From NCBI GenBank assembly GCA_030148425.1, contig JASBTM010000003.1, positions 124,001 through 188,000 on the forward strand: a stretch of 64,000 bases of DNA, in the 5' to 3' direction. The first letter of the stretch is position 1. Every line of letters starts with the position of its first letter. This DNA is from Hyphomicrobium sp. (GTDB lineage Bacteria; Pseudomonadota; Alphaproteobacteria; Rhizobiales; Hyphomicrobiaceae). This document shows positions 3,154-64,000 of this stretch, piece by piece. The notes beneath the pieces were generated by a model. The model ran no database searches. It saw nothing but the letters and a program-made list of their open reading frames with translations, and was not told where the DNA came from. The position numbers and the translations under genes are program-made.

Positions 3154-3432
3154 CTACTTCTTCGAACCTTTGCCGGTTTTGCTGTCGTCGTCTCCCGCGA
3201 TCACCTTGCGGCACTCGGGGCTCAGGCGGTTGAGGTTCTTGTTGAGGCAAGCGACGATCTTATCTTCGTTGGGAATTTGCCAGAAACAGAGGCTCAAAAC
3301 GTCCGGCGTGCACGCGGACTGCTCGTCCGCGGTTCCGCTGTGAGCGAAAGAAACGGCGGTTCCTGAAACCGTCATAGCTGCCGCGGCCGCGCAAACGGCC
3401 AACACTTGCCAGAGTTGAATTCGTCGTCGCAC
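3154..3432 (-). CDS. Small secreted Cys-rich (GLG1-type repeat) protein, copy B
   Basis: This 92-residue protein starts at GTG (GAGG upstream) and has a signal peptide ending about residue 31 (SFA-HSG). The mature part carries four cysteines spaced as in the Cys_rich_FGFR/GLG1 repeat: CTPDVLSLC, then IVACLNKNLNRLSPEC. A Lys/Ser/Asp-rich tail follows. The role is unknown; the pattern suggests two disulphides and export to the periplasm. It is a tandem paralogue of the gene at 3471-3725 and lies 38 bp downstream of it on the same strand, so the two are probably co-transcribed. Divergence is greatest in the signal peptide and tail, while the Cys core is nearly identical. Confidence 0.75.
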   Translation of the reverse strand: MRRRIQLWQVLAVCAAAAAMTVSGTAVSFAHSGTADEQSACTPDVLSLCFWQIPNEDKIVACLNKNLNRLSPECRKVIAGDDDSKTGKGSKK

Positions 3433-53784: not shown

Positions 53785-55335
53785 GTGAACATCGGCATCG
53801 TGTTGAGGGCCGTCGGCCAAGTCGCAAGCTGTTTATTATTGCTTTGCCTCCCGTTTTCGGCCGCTGGCGCCAAGTCGCGCGGCACGGTGGTGAGTACTGA
53901 CGCCGGTTTAGTCCAAGGCGTCCAGAGCCGCGGAGTCACGTCATTTAAAGGAATTCCTTACGCAGCTCCGCCAGTCGGGGAGTTCAGATGGCGCGAGCCG
54001 CAGCCTGTTGCGAAGTGGTCCGGAACGCGCCGGGCTGACACATTCGGCAAAGCCTGCATGCAAAAACCCGGCCTGTCGGCAGAGAATGGTGGCGATCCGG
54101 GAGAACTAAGTGAGGATTGTCTTACCCTCAATATCTGGACGCCAACACTGTCGTCATCGGCGAAGCTGTCCGTTGTCGTGTGGATTCACGGCGGCGCTTA
54201 CGTCTTCGGGGCGGGGAGCGTTCCGATCTATGATGGAACCGCCATTGCGCAAAAAGGCACGGTCTTCGTATCCATCAACTATCGGCTCGGGCCGCTTGGC
54301 TTCTTTGCTCATCCAGGGCTCGATAGTGGCACATCTGGTGGACCGTATAATTTTGGCATGCTCGACCAGGTCGCGGCGTTGAAATGGGTGAAAGCGAACA
54401 TTGCTAAGTTCGGGGGCGACCCAGCCGACGTCACGCTCATGGGGCAGTCTGCCGGCGGCAAGAGCGTACTCTGGCATTTCGCATCGCCTCTGTCGCGCGG
54501 ACTGTTTCACAGAGGCATCGCGGAAAGCGTGTACATTCTGCCCGATGCGACCCTCACCAAAGCTCGCGACGTTTCCGTCAAGATTGCGAACGCGGTCGGC
54601 CTCGACGGCGGGAATGCTTCGCTGAACGATCTGCGCAAGGTCCCTCCTGAAAGGTTCTTTGACATCGCCGACAAGGATGCTGCGCTTGGCCCGGTTGGCA
54701 TCGTCGGAGATGCGATGCTTCCGCGTTCGATCGCTGACACCTTTCAGGCAGGTGGCGAGGCGCGCCTACCGCTTATAATTGGCAACACAAGCGACGATGC
54801 CAGCGTCATCGCGGCATTCGGGGTTTCGCCAGACGAGATAATGAAAAAGCTTGGCGCGGCGGGCATAGCGTTGAAACTGCTCTACCCAGGCGTGCCCGCC
54901 GACAAGATCGCCAGTCAGGCATTGCGCGATATCGTATTCACGATGAACACGCGTTGGGTTGCTGATCGGCATTCCAAACGTGCGCCAACATGGCGTTACT
55001 ATTTCGACTATGTCGCGGCCAAGGATAAACCGAATTGGAAGGATGGCGTCCCGCACGGCGGCGAAGTCATCTATTTCCTCGACACCGTCGATAGCACTTA
55101 TGCCGAGCGCGACCGAGAGTTTGCTCGCAGAGTATCGAATTACATGGTTGAGTTTGCCAGCAGCGGTAAGCCAGCTCTTGCCGGTGGCCCGGTCTGGCAA
55201 GACGACCGGTTGTTCAGGGACCGCACGCTCGTCTTTGGACCCGACGGGATCGAGCAACGACGCAATTTCATGAAGACGCGGCTCGACGTGCTGATGGGCG
55301 CTACGAAGATCGTGGATTCCCTGTTTAAGCGATAG
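53785..55335 (+). CDS. Type-B carboxylesterase
   Basis: This 516-residue secreted esterase starts at GTG 53785 (GGGGGG upstream), with a signal peptide ending SAAGA-KS. It has the carboxylesterase type-B hallmarks SEDCLTLNIWTP, oxyanion WIHGGAYVFG, and nucleophile GQSAGGKSVLW (Ser about residue 224). The acid and His lie in the C-terminal third (HGGEVIYFL). It hydrolyses esters in the periplasm. It is the last native gene before the tRNA-like fragment and integrated element. Confidence 0.93.
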   Translation: MNIGIVLRAVGQVASCLLLLCLPFSAAGAKSRGTVVSTDAGLVQGVQSRGVTSFKGIPYAAPPVGEFRWREPQPVAKWSGTRRADTFGKACMQKPGLSAENGGDPGELSEDCLTLNIWTPTLSSSAKLSVVVWIHGGAYVFGAGSVPIYDGTAIAQKGTVFVSINYRLGPLGFFAHPGLDSGTSGGPYNFGMLDQVAALKWVKANIAKFGGDPADVTLMGQSAGGKSVLWHFASPLSRGLFHRGIAESVYILPDATLTKARDVSVKIANAVGLDGGNASLNDLRKVPPERFFDIADKDAALGPVGIVGDAMLPRSIADTFQAGGEARLPLIIGNTSDDASVIAAFGVSPDEIMKKLGAAGIALKLLYPGVPADKIASQALRDIVFTMNTRWVADRHSKRAPTWRYYFDYVAAKDKPNWKDGVPHGGEVIYFLDTVDSTYAERDREFARRVSNYMVEFASSGKPALAGGPVWQDDRLFRDRTLVFGPDGIEQRRNFMKTRLDVLMGATKIVDSLFKR

Positions 55336-55612
55336 GCGAGCCTTTCGTGGCTCGCTCATGTACTCGGCCAGCCGTCTTAGCCGGAACTCGCCGTACGGCG
55401 TTCGCTCACGCAACGCCGCGCGAGTTCATGGCGTGGTTCGATTGGAGATCTAATAAACAAGCGGATGTCTACACGTGCGAGGCAGAGCGGAATAGCTTGC
55501 TGGTGGCTTGGCAAGGATGGGCTAATGCGTGAGCATAGAAGTCCCACCCTGATCCCAGGTGGGACACTCTCCACCGATCGAAGCCTTATTTATCTTAGGC
55601 TTAGCAAGTGGG
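55336..55612. other. Region between carboxylesterase and element boundary
   Basis: A GCGAGCC/GGCTCGC hairpin follows the carboxylesterase stop, and a perfect 8-bp hairpin GTCCCACC/GGTGGGAC lies at 55541-55565. No supported gene. The second hairpin lies where a terminator for the tRNA on the minus strand would be expected. Confidence 0.5.
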
Positions 55613-55636
55613 TGGTGCCAGAAGAGGACTCGAACT
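55613..55636 (-). repeat. tRNA 3'-end fragment: probable attachment site (attL or attR)
   Basis: On the minus strand, positions 55636 down to 55613 read as a T-loop (TTCGAGT) followed by an acceptor 3' strand and ACCA, closely resembling the 3' end of a tRNA-Leu (one base shorter than the usual form). There is no matching T-stem 5' half upstream, so the tRNA is not intact here. Sequence beyond it (from about 55637) is abruptly AT-rich. Integrases commonly duplicate such tRNA ends, so this marks the left edge of the integrated element. Confidence 0.65.
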
Positions 55637-56044
55637 TCAATTTAATAACTTTATGAAATTAAATGAAAATATCATAATTTTTATGACAAAGAAATTTCCA
55701 TCCCCACAATTTCCCAACCTATACCGTAATGGCTGGAAAAATTCCGCCTATTAAGGGGGCGCTCTTCCAACTCCCTTGTAGCGCGATCTAGTCTTGGCCA
55801 TTGCTGGCGCGCGGGCAAGTGGCAGCGACTCGGGTTTGCTGTTGGCGAGTCGCCGGATGTAAAGGCGCAAGCAGATCGGACGCATGAAACTTTCATGCGC
55901 AACGACTCCGCACCGTTGAAATTATCTTGTTTGTCAATTGGCGTTATTTGCAGCGGAGGGCGCCGACGCCACCGAACCCGCCCCCAAACCTGATCCGTTC
56001 CACCCCATAGTTCTCTCCGTCCTCAATTCCATTCGGAGTGAACT
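55637..56044. other. AT-rich left end of the integrated element
   Basis: The first 60 bp (about 55637-55700) are strikingly AT-rich compared with the GC-rich surroundings. The remainder contains the perfect palindrome at 55881-55899 and no supported gene. It likely houses the early promoter region of the element. Confidence 0.55.
55881..55899. promoter_or_regulatory. Perfect 19-bp palindrome CGCATGAAACTTTCATGCG
   Basis: Perfect inverted repeat with a single central C, 146 bp upstream of the HTH gene at 56045. Such symmetry is typical of a repressor or excisionase operator in an integrated element. Confidence 0.5.
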
Positions 56045-56209
56045 ATGGAAGCTCATCGACTCGCGGCCGATCTCGGTATCGGCCGCACCACATTATGGCG
56101 CTGGATGCGCGCCGGACTATTGCCTGAACCTGAACGGCAAGGGCGCTGTGCCCTATACAGCCCCGCCGCCGTTCGCATGGCCCGCTCGCTCGCGGAGGCT
56201 GCGCGATGA
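56045..56209 (+). CDS. Short AlpA/MerR-like HTH protein (excisionase-like)
   Basis: This 54-residue protein consists of one helix-turn-helix: MEAHRLAADLGIGRTTLWRWMRAGLLPEPE, then a short basic/Arg-rich wing ending AVRMARSLAEAAR. The pattern matches AlpA/excisionase-type HTH_17 regulators that drive integration or excision in satellites. ATG 56045 follows GGAGTGA. It overlaps the next gene by 4 bp (ATGA). No integrase is visible in the window. Confidence 0.72.
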   Translation: MEAHRLAADLGIGRTTLWRWMRAGLLPEPERQGRCALYSPAAVRMARSLAEAAR

Positions 56210-56895
56210 TCGGCGTGCAATCTTATGCGCAGAAGGCCGCCGCAGCGGTCGAACGCAACCGCGTCGCTCTTGGGCGTTCGGAACGTCGCCTTGCCGAGCA
56301 TGACGCCGCGCGACCGGACAATGGCGATGCCGACAAATTGTTCGCGTGGAAGCGTGAGCGGCGCGACCTCGAAGATCGCGTTGAAAGCGACCGCGAGGCC
56401 TTTGCGTGGGCAGAGGTGAAGGCGACTGAAGCCGCAGAGGCGCAGCGGACTGCGGATGAAGACGCCCGGCGCGCTGCGGAGGAACGACAAGTCCGTGCCG
56501 ATGAGAAAATCGTCCGCGAAATGGACGCGCTGTCCCGCAAGCTGGCCGCCAAGCGCGATGAACTACGCGCGAGCCTTGAGCGGACGGCGCAAACAAACGC
56601 CAAGCGCGGCTCTCGCCTTTACATCCGGAACGCCGAGGAGCGTGTGCGTCAGTGCCCTGCGCGGACCATTCCGGCCGTCACTCAGCGCGCCACGGGGTGG
56701 TTCGATGAAAACGGCAATCGCCCTTCGCAGCTTCGTGACGACGGCACCGGCAGATTGGTTCCTTGCGATGGCGGCACATACCAATGGCGAGAGGTCGAGA
56801 TAGTCCAGCGGCCGGAAACGGTTGAGTCTGCGTCGATGCCCAAGAGCTTCGCAGAGGCCTTCACGCTGGTCGATTTGGAAGGGCGGGCGCTGTGA
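56206..56895 (+). CDS. Coiled-coil protein of the integrated element
   Basis: This 229-residue product is dominated by an acidic/basic alternating coiled coil (about residues 10-145, rich in Arg, Glu, Ala) and ends in a less regular region with two cysteines (RQCPART and LVPCDGG). It is a typical mobile-element protein without recognisable enzyme domain. It overlaps the HTH gene by 4 bp, so it is probably translated in concert with it. Confidence 0.62.
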   Translation: MIGVQSYAQKAAAAVERNRVALGRSERRLAEHDAARPDNGDADKLFAWKRERRDLEDRVESDREAFAWAEVKATEAAEAQRTADEDARRAAEERQVRADEKIVREMDALSRKLAAKRDELRASLERTAQTNAKRGSRLYIRNAEERVRQCPARTIPAVTQRATGWFDENGNRPSQLRDDGTGRLVPCDGGTYQWREVEIVQRPETVESASMPKSFAEAFTLVDLEGRAL

Positions 56896-56941
56896 CCGCG
56901 CTCCCGCTCCCCCGCCAATAATCCCCGTCTCCACACAAAAA

Positions 56942-56964
56942 GGGCGGCCCGGAAAGAGCCGCCC
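56942..56964 (+). terminator. Hairpin upstream of the 286-aa protein gene
   Basis: Perfect 7-bp stem GGGCGGC (56942-56948) with GCCGCCC (56958-56964), loop of 9, located between two element genes and just before the ribosome-binding site of the next one. It may be a partial terminator or an RNA stability element. Confidence 0.5.
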
Positions 56965-56979
56965 CAAGAGGAATTGCAT

Positions 56980-57840
56980 ATGAAGATTACCGCTGAACCG
57001 GCCCTGCCGCCAGCCGTTCGCGTGGCGGTCGAAATGACCGCTATGGACCTTCTATCCGCAACCGCGTCCGATGTTCCTGCCACCATGTTCCCAGTGCGCG
57101 AGGCATGGCTAGAAGCCGTTGAGGACGGAGAACAGGTTGACGGGTTTGCCGTGGCCGACGCCATAGCCCGCTTGCCCGATGCTGAGGCCGACGATGCGGT
57201 TGATCAATTTATTAGCGAAACATGGGGCGACGCGATCCGCTCAATGCCCATCCTGTTGACGTTTGTCGAGGCAGCGCCGCCCCGTGTGCTATCGGGAATT
57301 CGTGTGCTGTCTTTCGAAGAGGGCAAGGCGGGAAAAGATCGCGCTCTATGGCGGCACGACTGCGAGATGGCGCTGTGCCACTTCCTTGGCCTCACCGATG
57401 GGCCAGTGCCCCCAGTTCTTGAATGGCTGCTCCAGACGATGGAAAATGCCTTCAACGAGGGGCGGACGGCTTGTGGCATGGCCGACGATCCGCCGCGCCC
57501 CGCTCCGCATCCAGTCTATGCCGCTCGCGTGGCAGACGCCCGCGAGGCCGCCTCAATCCGGCTCGCCGCAACGGCCGACCTAGATAATCTCGCCGACGAA
57601 ATCCGCGCGGATTTTGGCATCCTCGACGGTGACGCGTGGCTCGCCGTCGAGGAAGTTTCTCGTGCCGCTGCGGTGGCCGGGGACATTCACGCCGCGCGTC
57701 TTCGCTCCGATCAGATTACCGGAGTCCATCGTTGGTTCGTTGAACACGCCGACGACCTCGCCGCGCGTGGCAAGCTTTTAATTGGCTCGATGATCGCAGC
57801 CGACAAGTCGCGCGAATATCTTCGGGGGGCAGCAGCATGA
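56980..57840 (+). CDS. Unknown 286-aa protein of the integrated element
   Basis: This 286-residue acidic protein starts at ATG 56980 after GAGGAA. It appears mostly helical, with several Trp and no recognisable motif. It overlaps the RepA-like gene by 4 bp (ATGA), so it is likely translated together with it. Given this position it may assist replication, but that is inference only. Confidence 0.6.
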   Translation: MKITAEPALPPAVRVAVEMTAMDLLSATASDVPATMFPVREAWLEAVEDGEQVDGFAVADAIARLPDAEADDAVDQFISETWGDAIRSMPILLTFVEAAPPRVLSGIRVLSFEEGKAGKDRALWRHDCEMALCHFLGLTDGPVPPVLEWLLQTMENAFNEGRTACGMADDPPRPAPHPVYAARVADAREAASIRLAATADLDNLADEIRADFGILDGDAWLAVEEVSRAAAVAGDIHAARLRSDQITGVHRWFVEHADDLAARGKLLIGSMIAADKSREYLRGAAA

Positions 57841-59309
57841 GCGTGGAACGCGCAGCGGCCCGCGCCGCAGAAATTATCGCGACGTCGCGCGTCAAGCTCG
57901 GCCCGGAAATCGTCGCTGTCACAGCAATCGGGCCGGACGGCACGCAAGAGGATTACAGGGCCGCGCTCGCCGTGGCTCTGGCGGCAGGAGATTGGAAACC
58001 GCGCCCACTTTACGATCCTCCAAAATGGCGGCCCGTCCCCGGCGGCGCGATGAAGCGGGACGGCAATCTCATCCACTTGCGCGTTGGCGAGGAAGCCATG
58101 CCAACGGCCGAGCTTGCCGAGAGTCCCGCTAAGGATGTCAGCGAGGAAGAAACGCTCGCGCCCAAGCCTCGCTACCATCCAGTGAGCGGCACGCTGGATT
58201 TGGGCCGCCGACTCGCGACGATAGACTTTGACCCAACTGCCGAGTTCGTGCCGCCTTCGTGGCTAGCGAAGGGACTCTTGCCTCGCAAGGGCATCGGCCT
58301 GCTGTTCGGCGAAAGCGGGGCCGGTAAATCGTTTGCCGCGATCCATGCCGCGTTGTGCGTCGCTTGGGGCCAGCCCTTGTTTGAAAAGAAGGTGAAGCAG
58401 GGCGGCGTGCTGTATGTTGCCGCCGAGGGTGGAGCAAGCGTCGCCGGGCGCTTTCGTGCGGCCAACGATGCCATGGGTGCGGCAGTCGCGGCGGCACGGC
58501 TTTCGGGAGAGTGTCCCCGGCGCGCGCCGGTTCGCATCGTGACCGAAGCTCCCGACCTCTCGCGCGATGGTGACCCCAAAGCGTTGCTCCGCACTATCGC
58601 CGATGCTGCGCATGATTTTGAGGAAGCGGGCTATCCGTTGGCGCTTGTCGTCATCGACACATGGCACGCGACACTCGGTGGCGGCGATGAAAACTCCGCC
58701 GCAGATGCTGGCTCAGCCTTGAAGCCGCTGCGCGATGCAGCGGAATCCGGTGGCTTTCACTGTTTGATCGTCCACCATCCGGGGAAGGATTCGGAACGCG
58801 GCGCTCGCGGATCGAATGCCCTGCCTGCGGCTGCTGACGCAATCATCGCCGTCACGGTCCCCGGCTTCGAAGGGGCTAAGGGTAAGCCGTCCGACGCGAT
58901 GCGCCGCGCCACAATAACCAAGATGCGCGACGGAGAAGCTGGTGGCGAATTCTGCTACCGCCTCCCCGTGGTCGAAATGGGAATCGACGAGGACGGCGAC
59001 CTTATCACGACGTGCCGTGTCGAGCCGTGCCACGCGCCGAAGCTTGCCGATGATGGCCTCAGCAAGACCGACAAGGAATTGATGGCCGTCGTGCGAGCCG
59101 CGCTTGTCGAGAGCGGGGGCGACCGTGCGAAAGCCGAGGAAGTGCGGCTGCGCTTCTATGCGGGGCGACCGGATGCGAAAGAGAGCACGCGGCGCATGGC
59201 GTGGCAACGCACGTTGCGCCGCGCGATAGAAGACGGGCGCATCGAGACCGACGAACACAGCGTTTTTCTGTGGTTTTCCGAAACCTCTGATGAAGCGACG
59301 GGTCCATAA
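57837..59309 (+). CDS. RepA-like RecA-fold ATPase of the integrated element
   Basis: This 490-residue protein has a RecA-type ATPase domain with Walker A GESGAGKS (about residues 158-165), Walker B LALVVIDTWHATLGGGDEN, and motif HHPGKDSERGARGSNALPAAADAII typical of RepA/AAA_25 phage and plasmid helicases. A C-terminal domain of about 120 residues may bind DNA. Such proteins initiate or drive element replication. A cluster of inverted repeats lies just downstream (59308-59415) and may be the origin. Confidence 0.82.
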   Translation: MSVERAAARAAEIIATSRVKLGPEIVAVTAIGPDGTQEDYRAALAVALAAGDWKPRPLYDPPKWRPVPGGAMKRDGNLIHLRVGEEAMPTAELAESPAKDVSEEETLAPKPRYHPVSGTLDLGRRLATIDFDPTAEFVPPSWLAKGLLPRKGIGLLFGESGAGKSFAAIHAALCVAWGQPLFEKKVKQGGVLYVAAEGGASVAGRFRAANDAMGAAVAAARLSGECPRRAPVRIVTEAPDLSRDGDPKALLRTIADAAHDFEEAGYPLALVVIDTWHATLGGGDENSAADAGSALKPLRDAAESGGFHCLIVHHPGKDSERGARGSNALPAAADAIIAVTVPGFEGAKGKPSDAMRRATITKMRDGEAGGEFCYRLPVVEMGIDEDGDLITTCRVEPCHAPKLADDGLSKTDKELMAVVRAALVESGGDRAKAEEVRLRFYAGRPDAKESTRRMAWQRTLRRAIEDGRIETDEHSVFLWFSETSDEATGP

Positions 59310-59415
59310 CGCACATCATTCGCACATTGTGCGCACGTTGTGCGAGACCAATGTGCGAAGCGCACGCACAGCACACACCCCTTTAGGGGTGTGCGTGTGT
59401 GCGCCGGATGGTGTG
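59308..59415. repeat. Repeat-rich candidate origin next to the RepA-like gene
   Basis: A perfect 11-bp inverted repeat TTCGCACATTG (59319-59329) and CAATGTGCGAA (59349-59359) encloses further TGTGCG units. A perfect 8-bp hairpin CACACCCC-TTTA-GGGGTGTG lies at 59374-59393. Multiple GTGCG/GCGCAC words recur throughout. Such clusters beside a replication ATPase suggest an origin or iteron array. Confidence 0.6.
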
Positions 59416-59544
59416 CGGTGGTGGATGGGCGGACGAGACATGCTCTCCCTATTTCTCCAGCTAGCCCGGCCGCGTATTGCGAGGCGTTGCCCCTGCGCCT
59501 AGCCACGAGGCCCCGCCGCCCACGCCGCCCACTCCACACTAAAA

Positions 59545-59688
59545 TCAAATTTCACGCCCTACCTGACCCCGGCGGCCACGGCGCACCTTAAACGCCTTCT
59601 TGATCGCGTCCGGCATATCATCGCCATATTTGGCGCGGGCGAAGTCCGCCTTGGTCCATTTCGGGTTTTCGCTCTTAGTCTTGGGCAT
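59545..59688 (-). CDS. Small BrnA-like protein, N-terminal part only
   Basis: This 47-residue product starts MPKTKSENPKWTKADFARAKYGDD, resembling the N-terminal part of BrnA-type antitoxins, and ends in a basic RGRRGQVGREI tail without the usual DNA-binding C-terminus. No BrnT partner is adjacent. ATG 59688 lies within the last codons of the small ORF upstream, suggesting coupled translation. Function is not claimed. Confidence 0.55.
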   Translation of the reverse strand: MPKTKSENPKWTKADFARAKYGDDMPDAIKKAFKVRRGRRGQVGREI

Positions 59689-59758
59689 TGTCCATTTCCA
59701 TTGCTCCGCCCGCGCCGAAGGCGTCCATGGTTTCGATTTTTACAATTAGGTTGGTCAT
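59675..59758 (-). CDS. Tiny acidic ORF downstream of the reverse transcriptase
   Basis: A 27-residue reading MTNLIVKIETMDAFGAGG, acidic at the end, overlaps the start of the BrnA-like ORF. A longer form beginning at 59848 (57 residues) is also possible. It lacks a clear ribosome-binding site. It is included because it continues the minus-strand operon downstream of the RT. Confidence 0.35.
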   Translation of the reverse strand: MTNLIVKIETMDAFGAGGAMEMDNAQD

Positions 59759-59867
59759 TTTGCGAATGATCTGTGCCCGCTGGCCCGTCTGTCCCGGTCG
59801 ACCATGATAGGGCGGGGACGAAAGGGATTTGGGGCCTTCACTCTTCATCGGCCCGTGAAATGCCTTG

Positions 59868-60773
59868 TCACGGCAATGCTTCGCCAGCGCCGGGGCTGGC
59901 AGGACGGTTCGCCATTTCGATTTGCCCGAATTGCCCAGCAAGGCCCGCAAGCCTGCCCGTGACCTTTGCGTTTTCGCGCGGGTTGCGGTTCCGCGCTACA
60001 GCAAGCTTGGCGTCCCGGAGTTTCCTGTGCTGGCGATTGGGCGCGAGCAGCTTGCCGCCTTTCACGATCACGCCGGTAATCTCACAGGGGCGGTCCACGG
60101 AGCGCTTCTCTTTGTGATACCGCAGGCCGCCGCCGTGGATGGCGCGCTTCACCGACCATACCAACTCCTGCGGCACGCGTTTGCCGCTCATGGTAATGTC
60201 GTCGATGTAGATCGACAGCACGCAACCCGCTTCCTTCGCGAGCGCCGCGACCTTTCTCCACACATCGACATGGGCGTAATACGCCAATATCGGGCTGGCC
60301 GGACTCCCGGTAGCGAGATGCCCGTCACAGCACGCGAGATTGGCCAGTATCGCCGCCACGTCCTTGGGGCATCCCATGATGGTGTTGAAAAACCAATAGA
60401 CACGGCGGCGCGTCGTGCTCGGAAAATACTGCTTCACATCGAGCGAATGCACGACGCGGGCATGCCGATGCCGACTGGCGTTGTCTACATATGAGCGGCC
60501 CTTGACGGGGCAGAACAACACATCCGGCGGCAATATGCGGCCAAGCAGCTTTGCGATGCGTTTCTGCACTCTTTTTAGCTGTGCGTTCGGATTGTCGACG
60601 ATGCGGGTCGTCCCGTTCTTTTTCGGGACGGGGAAATGCGAATAGAGATTTTCCGACTCGCTCAGGTGATGAAGTTCTTTGAGCGTTATGCCGAGCAACT
60701 CGGCAAGCTTGCGCTTCGTCGGCATGCGGAACAACGATGATTGCTCCAGAGCATGATATTTTTGTGCCTTCAT
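59868..60773 (-). CDS. Retron-type reverse transcriptase
   Basis: This 301-residue RT has all catalytic blocks: FPVPKKNGTTRIVDNPNAQLKRVQ (residues 47-70), catalytic D112 in SLDVKQYFPST, ATGSPASPILAYYA (154-167), YIDD (189-192), and a late ITGVIVKGG (232-240). It carries the retron signature NAxxH (NASRH, 98-102) and a VTG-like ITG, which group II intron RTs lack. Length around 300 residues is typical of retron RTs. It overlaps the XRE gene by 4 bp (ATGA). Retron RTs make an RNA-DNA hybrid from a neighbouring structured RNA and act in phage defence; a candidate RNA lies at 61377-61559. Confidence 0.88.
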   Translation of the reverse strand: MKAQKYHALEQSSLFRMPTKRKLAELLGITLKELHHLSESENLYSHFPVPKKNGTTRIVDNPNAQLKRVQKRIAKLLGRILPPDVLFCPVKGRSYVDNASRHRHARVVHSLDVKQYFPSTTRRRVYWFFNTIMGCPKDVAAILANLACCDGHLATGSPASPILAYYAHVDVWRKVAALAKEAGCVLSIYIDDITMSGKRVPQELVWSVKRAIHGGGLRYHKEKRSVDRPCEITGVIVKGGKLLAPNRQHRKLRDAKLAVARNRNPRENAKVTGRLAGLAGQFGQIEMANRPASPGAGEALP

Positions 60774-61066
60774 GCGTCCTCGGCCCTCGCCTCCAAAAAT
60801 TGCATCAACGCCAATACCTTTCCGGCAACGAGCCTTTGGGCGCTGGCACGGCGGCCGGGAGCTTGGAAGTTCTCTGCAAAAAACAGGATTGACGACGCCG
60901 GTATCTTGAACGCTTCGGCATACTTCTGAACCAGTTGAAGCGTCGGTTCCTTTGAACCGCTCTCGATCTCGCTGAGATAGGATTTCGAAATTCCGAGCTT
61001 TTCCGCCGCTGCATTTTGATTGAGATCGTGAAACTTTCGAATACAGCGCAAGGCAGCGCCGATCAT
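60770..61066 (-). CDS. XRE-family HTH regulator coupled to the reverse transcriptase
   Basis: This 98-residue protein has an XRE/Cro HTH (about residues 1-60: MIGAALRCIRKFHDLNQNAAAEKLGISKSYLSEIESG) and an Ala/Arg-rich helical tail. ATG 61066 follows AAGGAGG. It overlaps the RT gene by 4 bp, so expression is tightly linked. It could be the operon's regulator, or the DNA-binding partner of the retron as in known HTH-associated retrons. Confidence 0.85.
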   Translation of the reverse strand: MIGAALRCIRKFHDLNQNAAAEKLGISKSYLSEIESGSKEPTLQLVQKYAEAFKIPASSILFFAENFQAPGRRASAQRLVAGKVLALMQFLEARAEDA

Positions 61067-61109
61067 TGTGGCCTCCTTAAAAAAGGGGGGATAGCGGTAG
61101 GGCGCGCGC

Positions 61110-61277
61110 CTAATGTTTGAACCACTTCGCGATCTCGATAACCGCATCCACAAACTTTGTGACGTACGGCACAACAATCAGAAGTTTGAGCATCATCCGT
61201 CCCAGCAATTGCCAGAACTTCTTCCGCCAATTAGACCGCTTACGTCCCCTGCCGAAGCTTTTCGTGCGCGTGCGCAT
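61110..61277 (-). CDS. Small basic/hydrophobic peptide upstream of the XRE-RT pair
   Basis: This 55-residue peptide starts MRTRTKSFGRGRKRSNWRKKF at ATG 61277 (GGGAGG 10 bases upstream; ATG 61286 is only one base after it). The first 20 residues are strongly basic. The rest is hydrophobic/amphipathic (LLGRMMLKLLIVVPYVTKFVDAVIEIAKWF), suitable for membrane insertion. It is 43 bp upstream of the XRE gene on the same strand. This profile is seen in membrane-active toxin peptides; that is an inference. Confidence 0.6.
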   Translation of the reverse strand: MRTRTKSFGRGRKRSNWRKKFWQLLGRMMLKLLIVVPYVTKFVDAVIEIAKWFKH

Positions 61278-61376
61278 GAATTGCATGCCTCCCGCTGCTG
61301 GATGCGCCACATGCGCAGCCATGTCGTCGTGCAACAGGAACGGAACGGGGGACGCTTTACCCTACTGATACCCTTT

Positions 61377-61559
61377 CCGCGCGCGCTGTCGTCGGCGCGC
61401 GCGGGGGCCGCGTACTGCGGCCTAATTTGGTGAGCTTTCGCCCACCGCAAGGTCACCGACCTCAGAGAATGACGACTTGTCGTTCTGCTACTTCGGCTGA
61501 GGACGTGATCTCGTGATTCGGGGTCCGCGAGCAACGACAAAAGTTCGCTGACAGCGAAC
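61377..61559 (-). ncRNA. Hairpin-dense non-coding stretch: candidate msr-msd RNA or structured leader
   Basis: Upstream of the peptide-XRE-RT genes, five stems can be seen: CCGCGCGCGC/GCGCGCGCGG (61377-61404), GGCCGC/GCGGCC (61406-61422), GGTG..GC with a GAAA loop on the minus strand (61429-61446), AGGTC/GACCT (61450-61462), ACGAC/GTCGT (61472-61483) and GTTCGCT/AGCGAAC (61543-61559). No convincing gene occupies it. Retrons need a structured RNA near the RT; flanking a1/a2 repeats were not identified, so this is a candidate only. Confidence 0.45.
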
Positions 61560-61625
61560 AAGCCTGTGGATTATTCGACGGGACTGCGACCTCCAGTCGG
61601 CCGCGCCAAGGACTTCCGCAACTGG

Positions 61626-62480
61626 TCAGTATCGCTTTTTGTAAATGCCGGGGATCGTGAAGCGCTGCACATACGGGCAACGCCGCGACCTATTCATCGC
61701 GTCCCAATACATCGCCACAGCGACCGGCTCCCTGATGGCGGCTGGAACCCGGTACGCATAATGTCGGAAGTCCTTCGTCGCGTGTTCGGTTAAATGCCAT
61801 GAACGACGAAACTCCGGTTGCAGGTAATCGTATATGGTCCAGCGAATATTGTTCAGATACTCGCAAATCTGGCTGGAATGATAAGAGAATATGCCATTCA
61901 AGAACCATTTTCCGAAATCGTCGACTGCTAGGTAGGCCTCCTGCTCACTAACCGGGTGGCCCGCCTTTTCCAGCAAAGCCCGAAGATGACCGACATTGGT
62001 CGAGAGCCTCGCAATGTTATGCTTGGCGATGTCGCCGCACATTTTGAGATAGCGCAAACGCGACACGGTGATGTCGGCGACCACATCGATTTCGCCCAGG
62101 TTGACGCCTTCGGCGATAAATTCCCCTTCAAGCCAATCTGCGAACGCCTCCGTCGCCGCGCTTAAAGGAACGGGATCGCCTCCGAGCATCGGATTCGAGC
62201 AAACCTGACGCAAATGATACAGCATCGTTAGATCGGATGGCCGGACACCACTAGGCACCGGCTTGAAACCCAATGGCGGGAGCGCCCCTTTGTAGGAACG
62301 GATTTCCGATAAGAAATCGCCAAGCAGGATCGCGAACAGCCGGGCGCTGTGAGATGTAACGAAAATCAAATTGGAAAGCTCGGCTTTGTCGGTCTTCACG
62401 AACATGGCCCAGTTCACCATGTCGTCGATCATCTCCCACGCGGTTTTGAGAGTGATGATTTCGCGCTCGGTATCATTCAT
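61626..62480 (-). CDS. Unknown 284-aa protein of the element cargo
   Basis: This 284-residue, mostly helical protein begins MNDTEREIITLKTAWEMIDDMVNWAMFV and has no recognisable motif; several His residues (SHSARLF, DIAKHNIARL) occur in helices. It is on the same strand as the abortive-infection-like gene (75 bp upstream) and the RT module. It may be a further defence component. No function is claimed. Confidence 0.6.
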   Translation of the reverse strand: MNDTEREIITLKTAWEMIDDMVNWAMFVKTDKAELSNLIFVTSHSARLFAILLGDFLSEIRSYKGALPPLGFKPVPSGVRPSDLTMLYHLRQVCSNPMLGGDPVPLSAATEAFADWLEGEFIAEGVNLGEIDVVADITVSRLRYLKMCGDIAKHNIARLSTNVGHLRALLEKAGHPVSEQEAYLAVDDFGKWFLNGIFSYHSSQICEYLNNIRWTIYDYLQPEFRRSWHLTEHATKDFRHYAYRVPAAIREPVAVAMYWDAMNRSRRCPYVQRFTIPGIYKKRY

Positions 62481-62555
62481 GCGTACCCGTCACCGTCTGA
62501 ACGGTCACAACAGTTCGGCGAGACTGTAGCGGGAAAAAGATTAGCATACCCTCAG

Positions 62556-63638
62556 CTAGAGTCTGCGCACGAGCGCCTTGATCCAGATCATGCTAAACTC
62601 GATGGCCCACTCCGTCTGCGGCCGGGTAAGAGACGGCATCTCCGCGCTGCCCGCGCCGTGCCCCAGCGGGTTGCGCACATCACTGAAGAACGACTTCAAC
62701 GACTGACCTTCCCATGGCGCAATGAACGCATTTTTCTTGGCAGCCAGATTGTCGATGAAGTTGCTAGCACCCCGTTCATTCCCGGTGGTCCAGCACTTCT
62801 TATCCGATATGATCTTGATAGTGCTCTCCAGCGCACGCGCCGCATAGAATGCAGGATCGCGACCGTCTGAGTCCCGCAAGTCCAGCGCCTCTTTCATATC
62901 GAGGTCGACGTTCTTCCAAATTGGATCGGACACGGCCGACCAGAAAGGACTCTCGACCTCCTGTTGCACGACATTATCCGTGGAAAATTGAATGAAGCCG
63001 TTGTGATAGTGGAGCGGATAGTCGGCTTGGAGGAAGCGGGTATTCAACTCGTCTACGGCAGCTTGAAACGCAGCAGTCTTCTGCTGTCTCCACGTCAGCC
63101 CGCCTTCGGTGGGATTACCCGATATACGTAAACTGCTCATGAGCGCATCCACGCTCGTTGATTCAGCGGCATTCATGGCGGCGGTTTTCTTTTCACGCTC
63201 CCTGAATCCCAACTCAATCAAGCTCAGCCGTTCCTTGACGTATTCGTCCACAGAACCAACGGCAGGCAGCATCAACCAGTTTTCACAAACCTGAACCAAT
63301 GTATGTTTGTGCGTTTGGATGTGATCGACCCCGTTCCATTTCTGCGTATAGGAAAACCATAACGGAGAAAGCTCTTTAAGCCCTAGCTCGCGCGACAAGC
63401 GGGAGTGGAGGTCGGTCCAGAACTGCACCGCCTGCATATCCTCCTTGCCGCCCTGATAGTAGGGGCAAAGGTCTTCTGCGAGAATTCGGAATGCTTGCGT
63501 CAGCAGCCTAATATCTCGCTGCTCGATGACCGCACGAAGCGGTACTTCCTGATAGCGTCGTGCAAAAATATCAACAAGCATGGGACGAGTGAGACCAGAA
63601 ATGTTGACGTCGTGCAAGCGGATGGGCGGCTTCTGCAT
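62556..63638 (-). CDS. Abortive-infection-like protein with HEPN-like C-terminus
   Basis: This 360-residue product starts at ATG 63638 (a longer start at 63731 would overlap the opposite gene). The C-terminal 100 residues have ALESTIKIISDKKCW and FFSDVRNPLGHGAGSAEM, an RN...GHG-type motif as in AbiJ/HEPN-related C-terminal domains. The N-terminal part is predicted helical and not recognised. Such proteins are common in defence islands. Assignment is by motif similarity from memory. Confidence 0.6.
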   Translation of the reverse strand: MQKPPIRLHDVNISGLTRPMLVDIFARRYQEVPLRAVIEQRDIRLLTQAFRILAEDLCPYYQGGKEDMQAVQFWTDLHSRLSRELGLKELSPLWFSYTQKWNGVDHIQTHKHTLVQVCENWLMLPAVGSVDEYVKERLSLIELGFREREKKTAAMNAAESTSVDALMSSLRISGNPTEGGLTWRQQKTAAFQAAVDELNTRFLQADYPLHYHNGFIQFSTDNVVQQEVESPFWSAVSDPIWKNVDLDMKEALDLRDSDGRDPAFYAARALESTIKIISDKKCWTTGNERGASNFIDNLAAKKNAFIAPWEGQSLKSFFSDVRNPLGHGAGSAEMPSLTRPQTEWAIEFSMIWIKALVRRL

Positions 63639-63713
63639 ATCTATTTGAGTGCCTGACAGAGCAAGCCACCGAAACAAGCCCGCGCCTCTATCTTTTATCT
63701 TTACGATTGGCCT

Positions 63714-64000
63714 ATGCAGTTTGCCAATCATCCGGCCCGCATCGCCGCCGTGGCATCCGGCGGCCTACGTTGGACAGGCCCGTCATGTCCTCATCACGGC
63801 GCGACAGAACGGTGGACCTCATCGGGTCGCTGTATCGAATGCAGCCGCGTTTCCGCGCGCGAGCACGAGCGCCGCAAGATACCGCCAGAGGTGCGCGCGG
63901 CGCGCATTGCCGCCCGCGAGGCCGCTGAAGCCGAGCGCCGGGCACGTCCCAACATTCCCGCTCATCCTGACCGCCTTGCGGCACTAATAGCCGGAGAGCG
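63714..64000 (+). CDS. Zn-ribbon protein, possibly HNH-endonuclease-like, cut by the window edge
   Basis: The frame is open from ATG 63714 to the end. It has a CPHH...CIEC metal-site pattern (SGGLRWTGPSCPHHGATERWTSSGRCIECSR), which resembles the Cys/His region found in phage HNH-type and recombination proteins, followed by an Arg/Ala-rich helix. Only 95 residues are in the window; the rest lies outside. It overlaps the far upstream alternative of the opposite gene, supporting the shorter start of that gene. Confidence 0.6.
   Translation, partial: MQFANHPARIAAVASGGLRWTGPSCPHHGATERWTSSGRCIECSRVSAREHERRKIPPEVRAARIAAREAAEAERRARPNIPAHPDRLAALIAGE

What the first reader, a model, noticed from the sequence alone, without database searches (positions are those of the whole stretch)
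59868..61277. Peptide + XRE + retron-type RT module inside an integrated element
Three minus-strand genes sit within 1.4 kb: a 55-aa basic/hydrophobic peptide, an XRE HTH protein, and an RT with NAxxH, YIDD and VTG-like motifs. XRE and RT overlap by 4 bp. RT plus HTH gene is a known kind of retron arrangement, but a membrane-active-looking peptide as third member is, to my knowledge, not a standard type. The location in a mobile element next to an Abi-like gene supports a defence role.
Basis: partly seen in the sequence, partly recalled or inferred. Interest (0 to 1): 0.85.

Follow-up and report, generated by a model that had tools for sequence, protein, structure and literature searches.

The report
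Type VI retron controlling a toxin-like peptide
This is a bacterial type VI retron, a reverse-transcriptase module thought to defend against phages; comparison with relatives indicates that the RNA its enzyme copies is folded together with the start of the messenger for a small, probably toxic peptide, which suggests a testable way for reverse transcription to control that peptide.

Summary
RT and HTH are type VI retron proteins (RT_VI 298 bits, next family 149.6; HTH_VI 109 bits); the RT groups with 39 other type VI RTs against 7 outside rows (100/100). The peptide is not a new component: type VI retrons were described as RT + DNA-binding protein + small auxiliary protein (passages of PMC8541194), and such an ORF precedes the HTH in 108 of 109 loci. 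A motif (M) just after a1 pairs with an element (T) near that site (98% of cells in 25 alphaproteobacterial leaders), and the msd hairpin loop (L) repeats T: mean shared run 5.79 nt against 4.15 when shuffled between loci, 0/5000. I infer that the peptide is the toxin and that its translation is coupled to the retron RNA or its msDNA. Direction of control, msDNA, toxicity and phage defence are untested. The carrier is a ~12.3-kb element in a tRNA-Leu gene.

The parts
61544..61558 (-). Operator-like palindrome TTCGCTgtcAGCGAA, proposed site of the XRE protein
   Evidence: Only 12/12 match in the window; 25 of 61 representative loci perfect and 44 of 61 at >=11/12 upstream of the peptide, against 0 and 1 of 1220 shuffles; 8 nt before a -35-like TTGA/TGGA/TTGC in 21 of those 44. 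The consensus was taken from these same loci. Binding not tested.
61529..61534 (-). -35-like TTGCTC; the -10 is weak in this copy
   Evidence: Position relative to the palindrome as in relatives; inferred
61481..61485 (-). a1 (GAACG), 5' arm of the msr-msd closing helix
   Evidence: a1:a2 complementarity is locus-specific (n=32: 5.12 against 4.36, 0/5000); only 5 bp in this copy
61471..61476 (-). M motif GTCGTC, starting at the putative branching G
   Evidence: Complementary to T and L; branch point inferred from the standard retron layout (recalled)
61449..61463 (-). msr stem I
   Evidence: Covariation; model R1 matches window 61489-61426, 43.3 bits, E 1.9e-9 (window is in the model)
61429..61446 (-). 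msr stem II
   Evidence: Covariation
61377..61404 (-). Long GC-rich hairpin, proposed msd stem-loop
61387..61394 (-). L: loop CGACGACA of the msd hairpin
   Evidence: Identical to T over 8 nt; locus-specific in relatives
61338..61347 (-). a2 region (two tandem CGTTC, either can pair with a1)
61331..61338 (-). 5' arm of the proposed ribosome-binding-site stem
   Evidence: By comparison with relatives; the window's own minimum-energy fold gives the Shine-Dalgarno another partner
61322..61329 (-). T: leader element CGACGACA, 45-52 nt before the peptide ATG
61288..61298 (-). 3' arm of that stem with Shine-Dalgarno GGGAGG (61293-61288)
   Evidence: Pairing probability 0.93 in the window; 52 of 61 loci above 0.6
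61110..61277 (-). 55-aa peptide gene: basic N-terminal half, hydrophobic C-terminal half; proposed toxin
   Evidence: no match in Pfam, PADLOC or PHROGs
60770..61066 (-). XRE/HTH protein, HTH_VI
   Evidence: 109.3 bits, E 2e-32
59868..60773 (-). Retron reverse transcriptase, RT_VI
   Evidence: 298 bits, E 1.5e-89; tree
55618..55635 (+). 18-bp copy of the tRNA-Leu end: left end of the carrying element; right end at G000:C7:191916-191933, beyond the window

Best explanation
A type VI retron whose ncRNA and toxin messenger are one folded unit. The XRE protein binds the palindrome 61544-61558 and sets transcription (inferred). The transcript holds a1, M, two msr stems, the msd hairpin (loop L), a2, a stem that covers the peptide's Shine-Dalgarno and carries T, then the peptide, XRE and RT genes (RNA anatomy supported by covariation; single transcript inferred from gene order). 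M pairs with T and L mimics T (shown as locus-specific complementarity and identity). The RT copies the msd from a branching G at the start of M (inferred from retrons in general). The RT-bound msr, through M, or the msDNA, whose loop is the complement of L and therefore of T, then keeps T occupied and the ribosome-binding site closed (inferred). A phage that attacks msDNA, RT or RNase H would free the leader; the basic, hydrophobic peptide is made, damages the membrane and stops the infected cell (inferred from retron and small-toxin biology, recalled).
For: RT_VI and HTH_VI by profile, tree. Peptide ORF in 108 of 109 loci, dN/dS below 0.5 in 16 of 18 pairs. msr stems: covariation score 0.709 against 0.274 shuffled (0/500), at most 0.254 when slid; the model finds 42 of 50 type VI loci not used to build it at E<=0.01, among them 8 of 8 cyanobacterial ones, and 0 of 8 non-type-VI controls. 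a1:a2. L=T: 5.79 against 4.15, n=61, 0/5000; n=23 representatives under 50% identity 5.65 against 4.12, 0/5000; within clades 5.79 against 4.58, 0/5000. M:L 4.91 against 3.46, 0/5000; M:T 5.31 against 4.77, 4/5000, n=32; M:T 98% of cells paired, with changes on both sides at 3 of 6 pairs, n=25. Shine-Dalgarno region paired 0.76 against 0.57 shuffled, p 8e-8, 52 of 61 loci above 0.6.
Against: No wet evidence of msDNA, toxicity or defence. The direction of control cannot be read from sequence: RNase H cutting at a DNA:T hybrid could remove the 5' arm and switch the peptide on instead. The window's leader is not more stable than its shuffles (z +0.73), and its own minimum-energy fold pairs the Shine-Dalgarno with an upstream C run and half of T with TGTTG. 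a1:a2 is only 5 bp in the window. L=T is not significant in the phage/gammaproteobacterial clade (4.91 against 4.70, 1034/5000). In one group the loop is only 4 nt, so L=T includes stem bases. In the shuffle test the number of pairs changed on both sides was not unusual (11 against 10.1, 178/500).
Confidence: 0.55

Rival explanations
1. Conventional retron toxin-antitoxin: the peptide is the toxin but is held at the protein level by the RT-msDNA-HTH complex; the M:T:a1:a2 pairing is part of the ncRNA scaffold needed to start reverse transcription, and closeness to the ribosome-binding site is incidental.
For: Protein-level sequestration is how retrons are usually described (abstract of PMC12548924). 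M begins at the putative branching G, and where T and L differ M follows T (L084, L017, L087, L096, the last three near-copies), as expected if M:T is a structural pseudoknot.
Against: Does not explain why the msd loop repeats T, nor why the Shine-Dalgarno is paired in 52 of 61 loci.
Confidence: 0.27
2. The peptide is a small accessory or antitoxin-like cofactor (for instance an RNA or DNA chaperone, being strongly basic), and the effector is elsewhere, such as the HTH protein or a neighbouring gene.
For: Basic N-terminal half (median +6); in 3 of the 15 named records inspected a TIR gene follows the RT (L018, L022, L023), and two of the three were scanned and match ThsB.
Against: TIR genes are absent from the window and from the other 12 named records inspected; the peptide is the only conserved third gene, with a hydrophobic stretch centred in the C-terminal half in 79 of 81 distinct peptides.
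Confidence: 0.15
3. Decayed or inactive copy in this genome.
For: Weak -10 and short a1:a2 in the window.
Against: All three frames intact; L, T and M match perfectly in the window; dN/dS 0.26 against L008.
Confidence: 0.05

Closest known systems
Type VI retrons (Mestre 2020 classification; PADLOC RT_VI and HTH_VI)
   Same: RT and HTH best matches by a wide margin, gene order peptide-HTH-RT, HTH/RT overlap, small auxiliary protein.
   Different: Nothing that I can show; the leader anatomy described here (operator, msr-msd, M-L-T) appears shared by type VI retrons in general. Mestre 2020 itself could not be read.
Type VI retrons of phages MuM16-1, ST147-VIM1phi7.1, P2_2H1 and KS5 (PMC8541194, passages)
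   Same: HTH/RT pair with overlapping ends and a short upstream ORF; RTs 31.7-36.1% identical to the window's RT.
   Different: Carried by prophages, not by a small tRNA-Leu element; peptides only remotely alike (13-16%). For MuM16-1 the paper compares p31, which the record puts on the other strand; I find an unannotated 48-aa ORF on the right strand (L029 1986-2132).
Type I toxin-antitoxin systems (Hok/Sok, TisB/IstR; recalled)
   Same: Small hydrophobic peptide whose ribosome-binding site is hidden in leader structure and controlled by base pairing.
   Different: Here the pairing partners would be retron msr RNA and/or reverse-transcribed DNA, with a dedicated RT and HTH regulator.
DRT2 (PMC12039810; search listing and start of abstract only)
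   Same: A reverse transcriptase acting on an adjacent structured ncRNA, linked to a toxic protein product.
   Different: DRT2 assembles a gene from the ncRNA; here the peptide gene is already encoded downstream of the ncRNA.

Membership tests
Type VI retron | RT of the type VI clade | tested here: met
   RT_VI 298 bits, next best 149.6; inside the 40-row type VI group, 100/100, against 7 other retron-like rows only
Type VI retron | Adjacent HTH protein of the type VI kind | tested here: met
   HTH_VI 109.3 bits, next 34 bits
Type VI retron | Small auxiliary protein gene | tested here: met
   55-aa ORF; counterpart in 108 of 109 loci; feature as described in PMC8541194
Retron (any type) | msr-msd ncRNA with stem-loops | tested here: met
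   Comparative: covarying stems, model matches; no Rfam family matched the region
Retron (any type) | a1/a2 closing repeats and branching G | tested here: inconclusive
   a1:a2 significant across loci but 5 bp in the window; branching G inferred from position only
Retron (any type) | msDNA is made | not testable with these tools
   Needs RNA/DNA work
Retron defence system | Protection against phage | not testable with these tools
   Needs plaque assays
Type I toxin-antitoxin (mode of action only) | Small hydrophobic toxin with structured, SD-sequestering leader | tested here: inconclusive
   Composition and leader agree; toxicity not tested
Type I toxin-antitoxin | Separate antisense RNA gene | not tested
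   No search for an antisense RNA promoter was made

The most novel reading that the evidence does not exclude
The msDNA itself is the antitoxin, acting as an antisense DNA: the loop of the reverse-transcribed hairpin is the complement of the toxin messenger's leader element T beside the ribosome-binding site, so that continual reverse transcription silences the toxin and loss of msDNA during phage attack releases it. Support beyond the M:T pairing: L=T identity runs on past the stretch that M can pair in 30 of 53 flanking positions (the alignment was chosen by the longest L=T run, which inflates this).
Probability: 0.3. Interest if true: 0.9.

Novelty: new member of a known kind. Interest (0 to 1): 0.6.

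Why it matters
Known retrons are usually explained as protein effectors held by an RT-msDNA complex. If type VI retrons instead control a tiny toxin at its messenger, through the retron RNA or through an antisense msDNA, that would be another way for reverse transcription to act in immunity, would give the small protein and the ncRNA of type VI retrons a joint role, and yields exact nucleotides (M, L, T) for compensatory tests. It also predicts the XRE operator and makes the unannotated peptide easy to find: 7 of the 15 named plasmid and phage records inspected had no gene call for it. I found no account of this in the held library, but that library lacks Mestre 2020 and most subscription papers, and I have an uncertain memory of a 2025 preprint on hybrid ncRNA/mRNA in type VI retrons, so novelty is provisional.

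Tried and rejected
Considered and dropped: (1) A long a1/a2 duplex with a2 inside the peptide gene (ATCCACA/TGTGGAT), suggested by the first fold; relatives do not share it and place a2 upstream of the ribosome-binding-site stem. (3) An Rfam-known RNA: no match up to E 1 in 55000-64000. (4) The hypothesis that L pairs directly with T: L:T complementarity is at or below chance (control; revcomp control). (5) A single-protein scan of genome contigs found no relative, and the 19-RT alignment had no usable stretch there; a 9-RT alignment worked. (6) The first operator count scored the three spacer positions as matches; one search repeats it correctly and is the one used. (7) MAFFT alignment of the 3' module was not good enough for pair counts and was not used.

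Limits of the tests: automatic msd hairpin picks look wrong in several loci (L103, L028, L030 and some cyanobacterial ones) and were left in; the M tests used 48 of 84 distinct leaders, 23 of them anchored by hand, none cyanobacterial; the L columns of L071 and L077 are misaligned and were left in. In one search the pair columns came from RNAalifold on the same alignment, which favours them. Many of the 42 model hits are close kin of training rows.

Full report
Observation. The three minus-strand genes are exactly as described: peptide 61110-61277, XRE 60770-61066, RT 59868-60773, XRE and RT overlapping by 4 bp. The RT motifs stand at columns that are invariant in 19 of 19 aligned relatives.

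Identity. Among PADLOC models the RT fits RT_VI best (298 bits; next RT-Protease_XI 149.6) and the XRE protein fits HTH_VI best (109.3; next 34.0). In a tree of 47 RTs (40 type VI representatives under 60% identity plus L008, 7 other retron-like RTs) the 40 form one side of a 100/100 branch and the window pairs with L008 (100/100, 70% identical). The peptide has no match in PADLOC, Pfam or PHROGs. [quoted passage not shown] so the three-gene set is a known kind. Mestre 2020 itself is not held.

Distribution. Two of 22 genomes of the genus, and 3 of 385 in a class-wide sample at E<=1e-40, carry a related RT, own genome counted in both. In the order-wide sample 13 of 397 match RT_VI at E<=1e-50; 6 of these, own included, score above 285 bits, and the other 7 score under 220 bits and have no HTH beside them. 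Named relatives come from 40 uncultivated viral contigs, 49 loci of named genomes, plasmids and phages.

Peptide. Of 120 loci scored, 109 have an HTH beside an RT of more than 250 bits; in 108 of these a 47-67 aa ORF with net positive charge ends 25-70 nt before the HTH (positive charge was a condition of the pick). The 11 without HTH are 7 other-type RTs, 3 RTs at a contig end or truncated (L033, L058, L115) and L038. The hydrophobic stretch is centred in the C-terminal half in 79 of 81 distinct peptides. dN/dS is below 0.5 in 16 of 18 pairs. It is annotated in 8 of the 15 named records inspected and missing in 7.

Operator. Upstream of the peptide lies TTCGCTnnnAGCGAA: 25 of 61 representatives perfect, 44 of 61 at 11 or more of 12, against 0 and 1 of 1220 shuffled regions; in 21 of the 44 a -35-like box begins 8 nt downstream. 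In the window it is at 61544-61558 and is the only perfect match in 64 kb. I take it as the XRE protein's site (inferred).

ncRNA. Between the operator and the peptide all aligned leaders share two msr-like stems: 92.0% of cells paired, covariation 0.709 against 0.274 shuffled (0/500) and at most 0.254 for slid partners; the count of pairs changed on both sides alone is not unusual (11 against 10.1, 178/500). A covariance model of this part (30 sequences) hits 42 of 50 type VI sources not used to build it at E<=0.01, 8 of 8 cyanobacterial ones among them at E<=2.7e-7, and none of 8 controls with other RTs; misses are L025, L028, L029 (0.045), L035, L059, L062, L104, L120. A long hairpin follows (msd), then a short a2 that is complementary to a1 (n=32: 5.12 against 4.36 nt, 0/5000; the same a1 against a downstream control region 4.00 against 4.05, 3366/5000).

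M, L and T. The msd hairpin loop (L) recurs on the same strand in the leader (T), in the window as CGACGACA at 61394-61387 and 61329-61322. Across loci the shared run averages 5.75-5.79 nt in 84, 61 and 44 loci (all, under 80%, under 65% RT identity) and 5.65 in 23 loci under 50%, against 4.12-4.21 when leaders are exchanged between loci (0/5000 each); coding 5' end 4.18-4.30, upstream 3.79-3.96, reverse complement 3.63-3.74, shuffled 3.94-3.98. Exchanging only within RT clades still gives 0/5000 overall (5.79 against 4.58, n=61), but the phage/gammaproteobacterial clade alone is not significant (1034/5000, n=11). A motif M just 3' of a1 is complementary to both: M:L 4.91 against 3.46 (0/5000), M:T 5.31 against 4.77 (4/5000), n=32; controls M=T identity, L:T complementarity and M against the coding start are not significant (1009, 4614 and 4851 of 5000). 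In 25 alphaproteobacterial leaders M:T is paired in 98% of cells, with changes on both sides at 3 of 6 pairs; cell counts M:T 146, M:L 138, L=T 136 of 150. Where T and L differ, M fits T better in L084, L017, L087 and L096 (the last three near-copies).

Ribosome-binding site. In 61 representatives the Shine-Dalgarno region is paired with mean probability 0.76 against 0.57 for shuffles (p 8e-8), above 0.6 in 52 of 61; mean energy z -2.19, below -2 in 37 of 61; the window's own z is +0.73 although its Shine-Dalgarno pairing is 0.93. In relatives such as L086 and L097 T lies in an unpaired bulge of the stem; the window's minimum-energy fold differs.

Mechanism. Shown by comparison: the RNA anatomy, M:T complementarity, L=T identity, Shine-Dalgarno pairing. 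Inferred: that the peptide is toxic; that RT action or msDNA keeps T occupied and the peptide off; that phage attack relieves this. M:T alone would make an RNA pseudoknot crossing a1:a2; the copy in L adds either a competitor for M or, once reverse transcribed, a DNA loop complementary to T. I cannot separate these: L=T extends past M:T in 30 of 53 flanking positions, but that count is biased upward.

Context. The module sits in an element of about 12.3 kb bounded by an 18-bp repeat (window 55618-55635 and G000:C7:191916-191933, inside tRNA-Leu), with integrase, an AAA_25 helicase/primase-like gene (57837-59309), an AbiJ_NTD4 gene (62556-63731) and a minor-tail-like gene. In the second genome of the genus that has it, the retron also lies near a tyrosine integrase and a similar tail-like ORF (homology of that ORF judged by eye).

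Verdict.

Noticed in passing
G000:C16:456446-457054 (L002 514-2196): The same genome carries a second retron-like gene, an RT-TIR fusion of 560 aa best matching PADLOC RT-TIR_XII at 521 bits.
   Followed up: partly
window 61626-62480 (-): 284-aa protein next to the module with no match in Pfam, PADLOC or PHROGs.
   Followed up: no
window 62556-63731 (-): AbiJ_NTD4 protein, a candidate second defence gene in the same element.
   Followed up: partly
L018 3968-4927, L022 3893-4858, L023 3896-4861: A TIR gene directly follows the type VI RT; the two scanned (L018, L022) match ThsB.
   Followed up: partly
window 59545-59688 (-): 47-aa ORF downstream of the RT, without a family match.
   Followed up: no
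L026 1750-2142: The annotated 'hypothetical protein' is an over-long call whose first part reads through the ncRNA leader; the peptide itself starts at 1987.
   Followed up: yes
L029 1986-2132 (Shewanella phage MuM16-1): Unannotated 48-aa peptide ORF before the HTH; the paper compared a different gene, p31, with the small proteins of other phages.
   Followed up: yes
window 3334-3348: Second-best match (11 of 12) to the operator palindrome, far from the retron.
   Followed up: no
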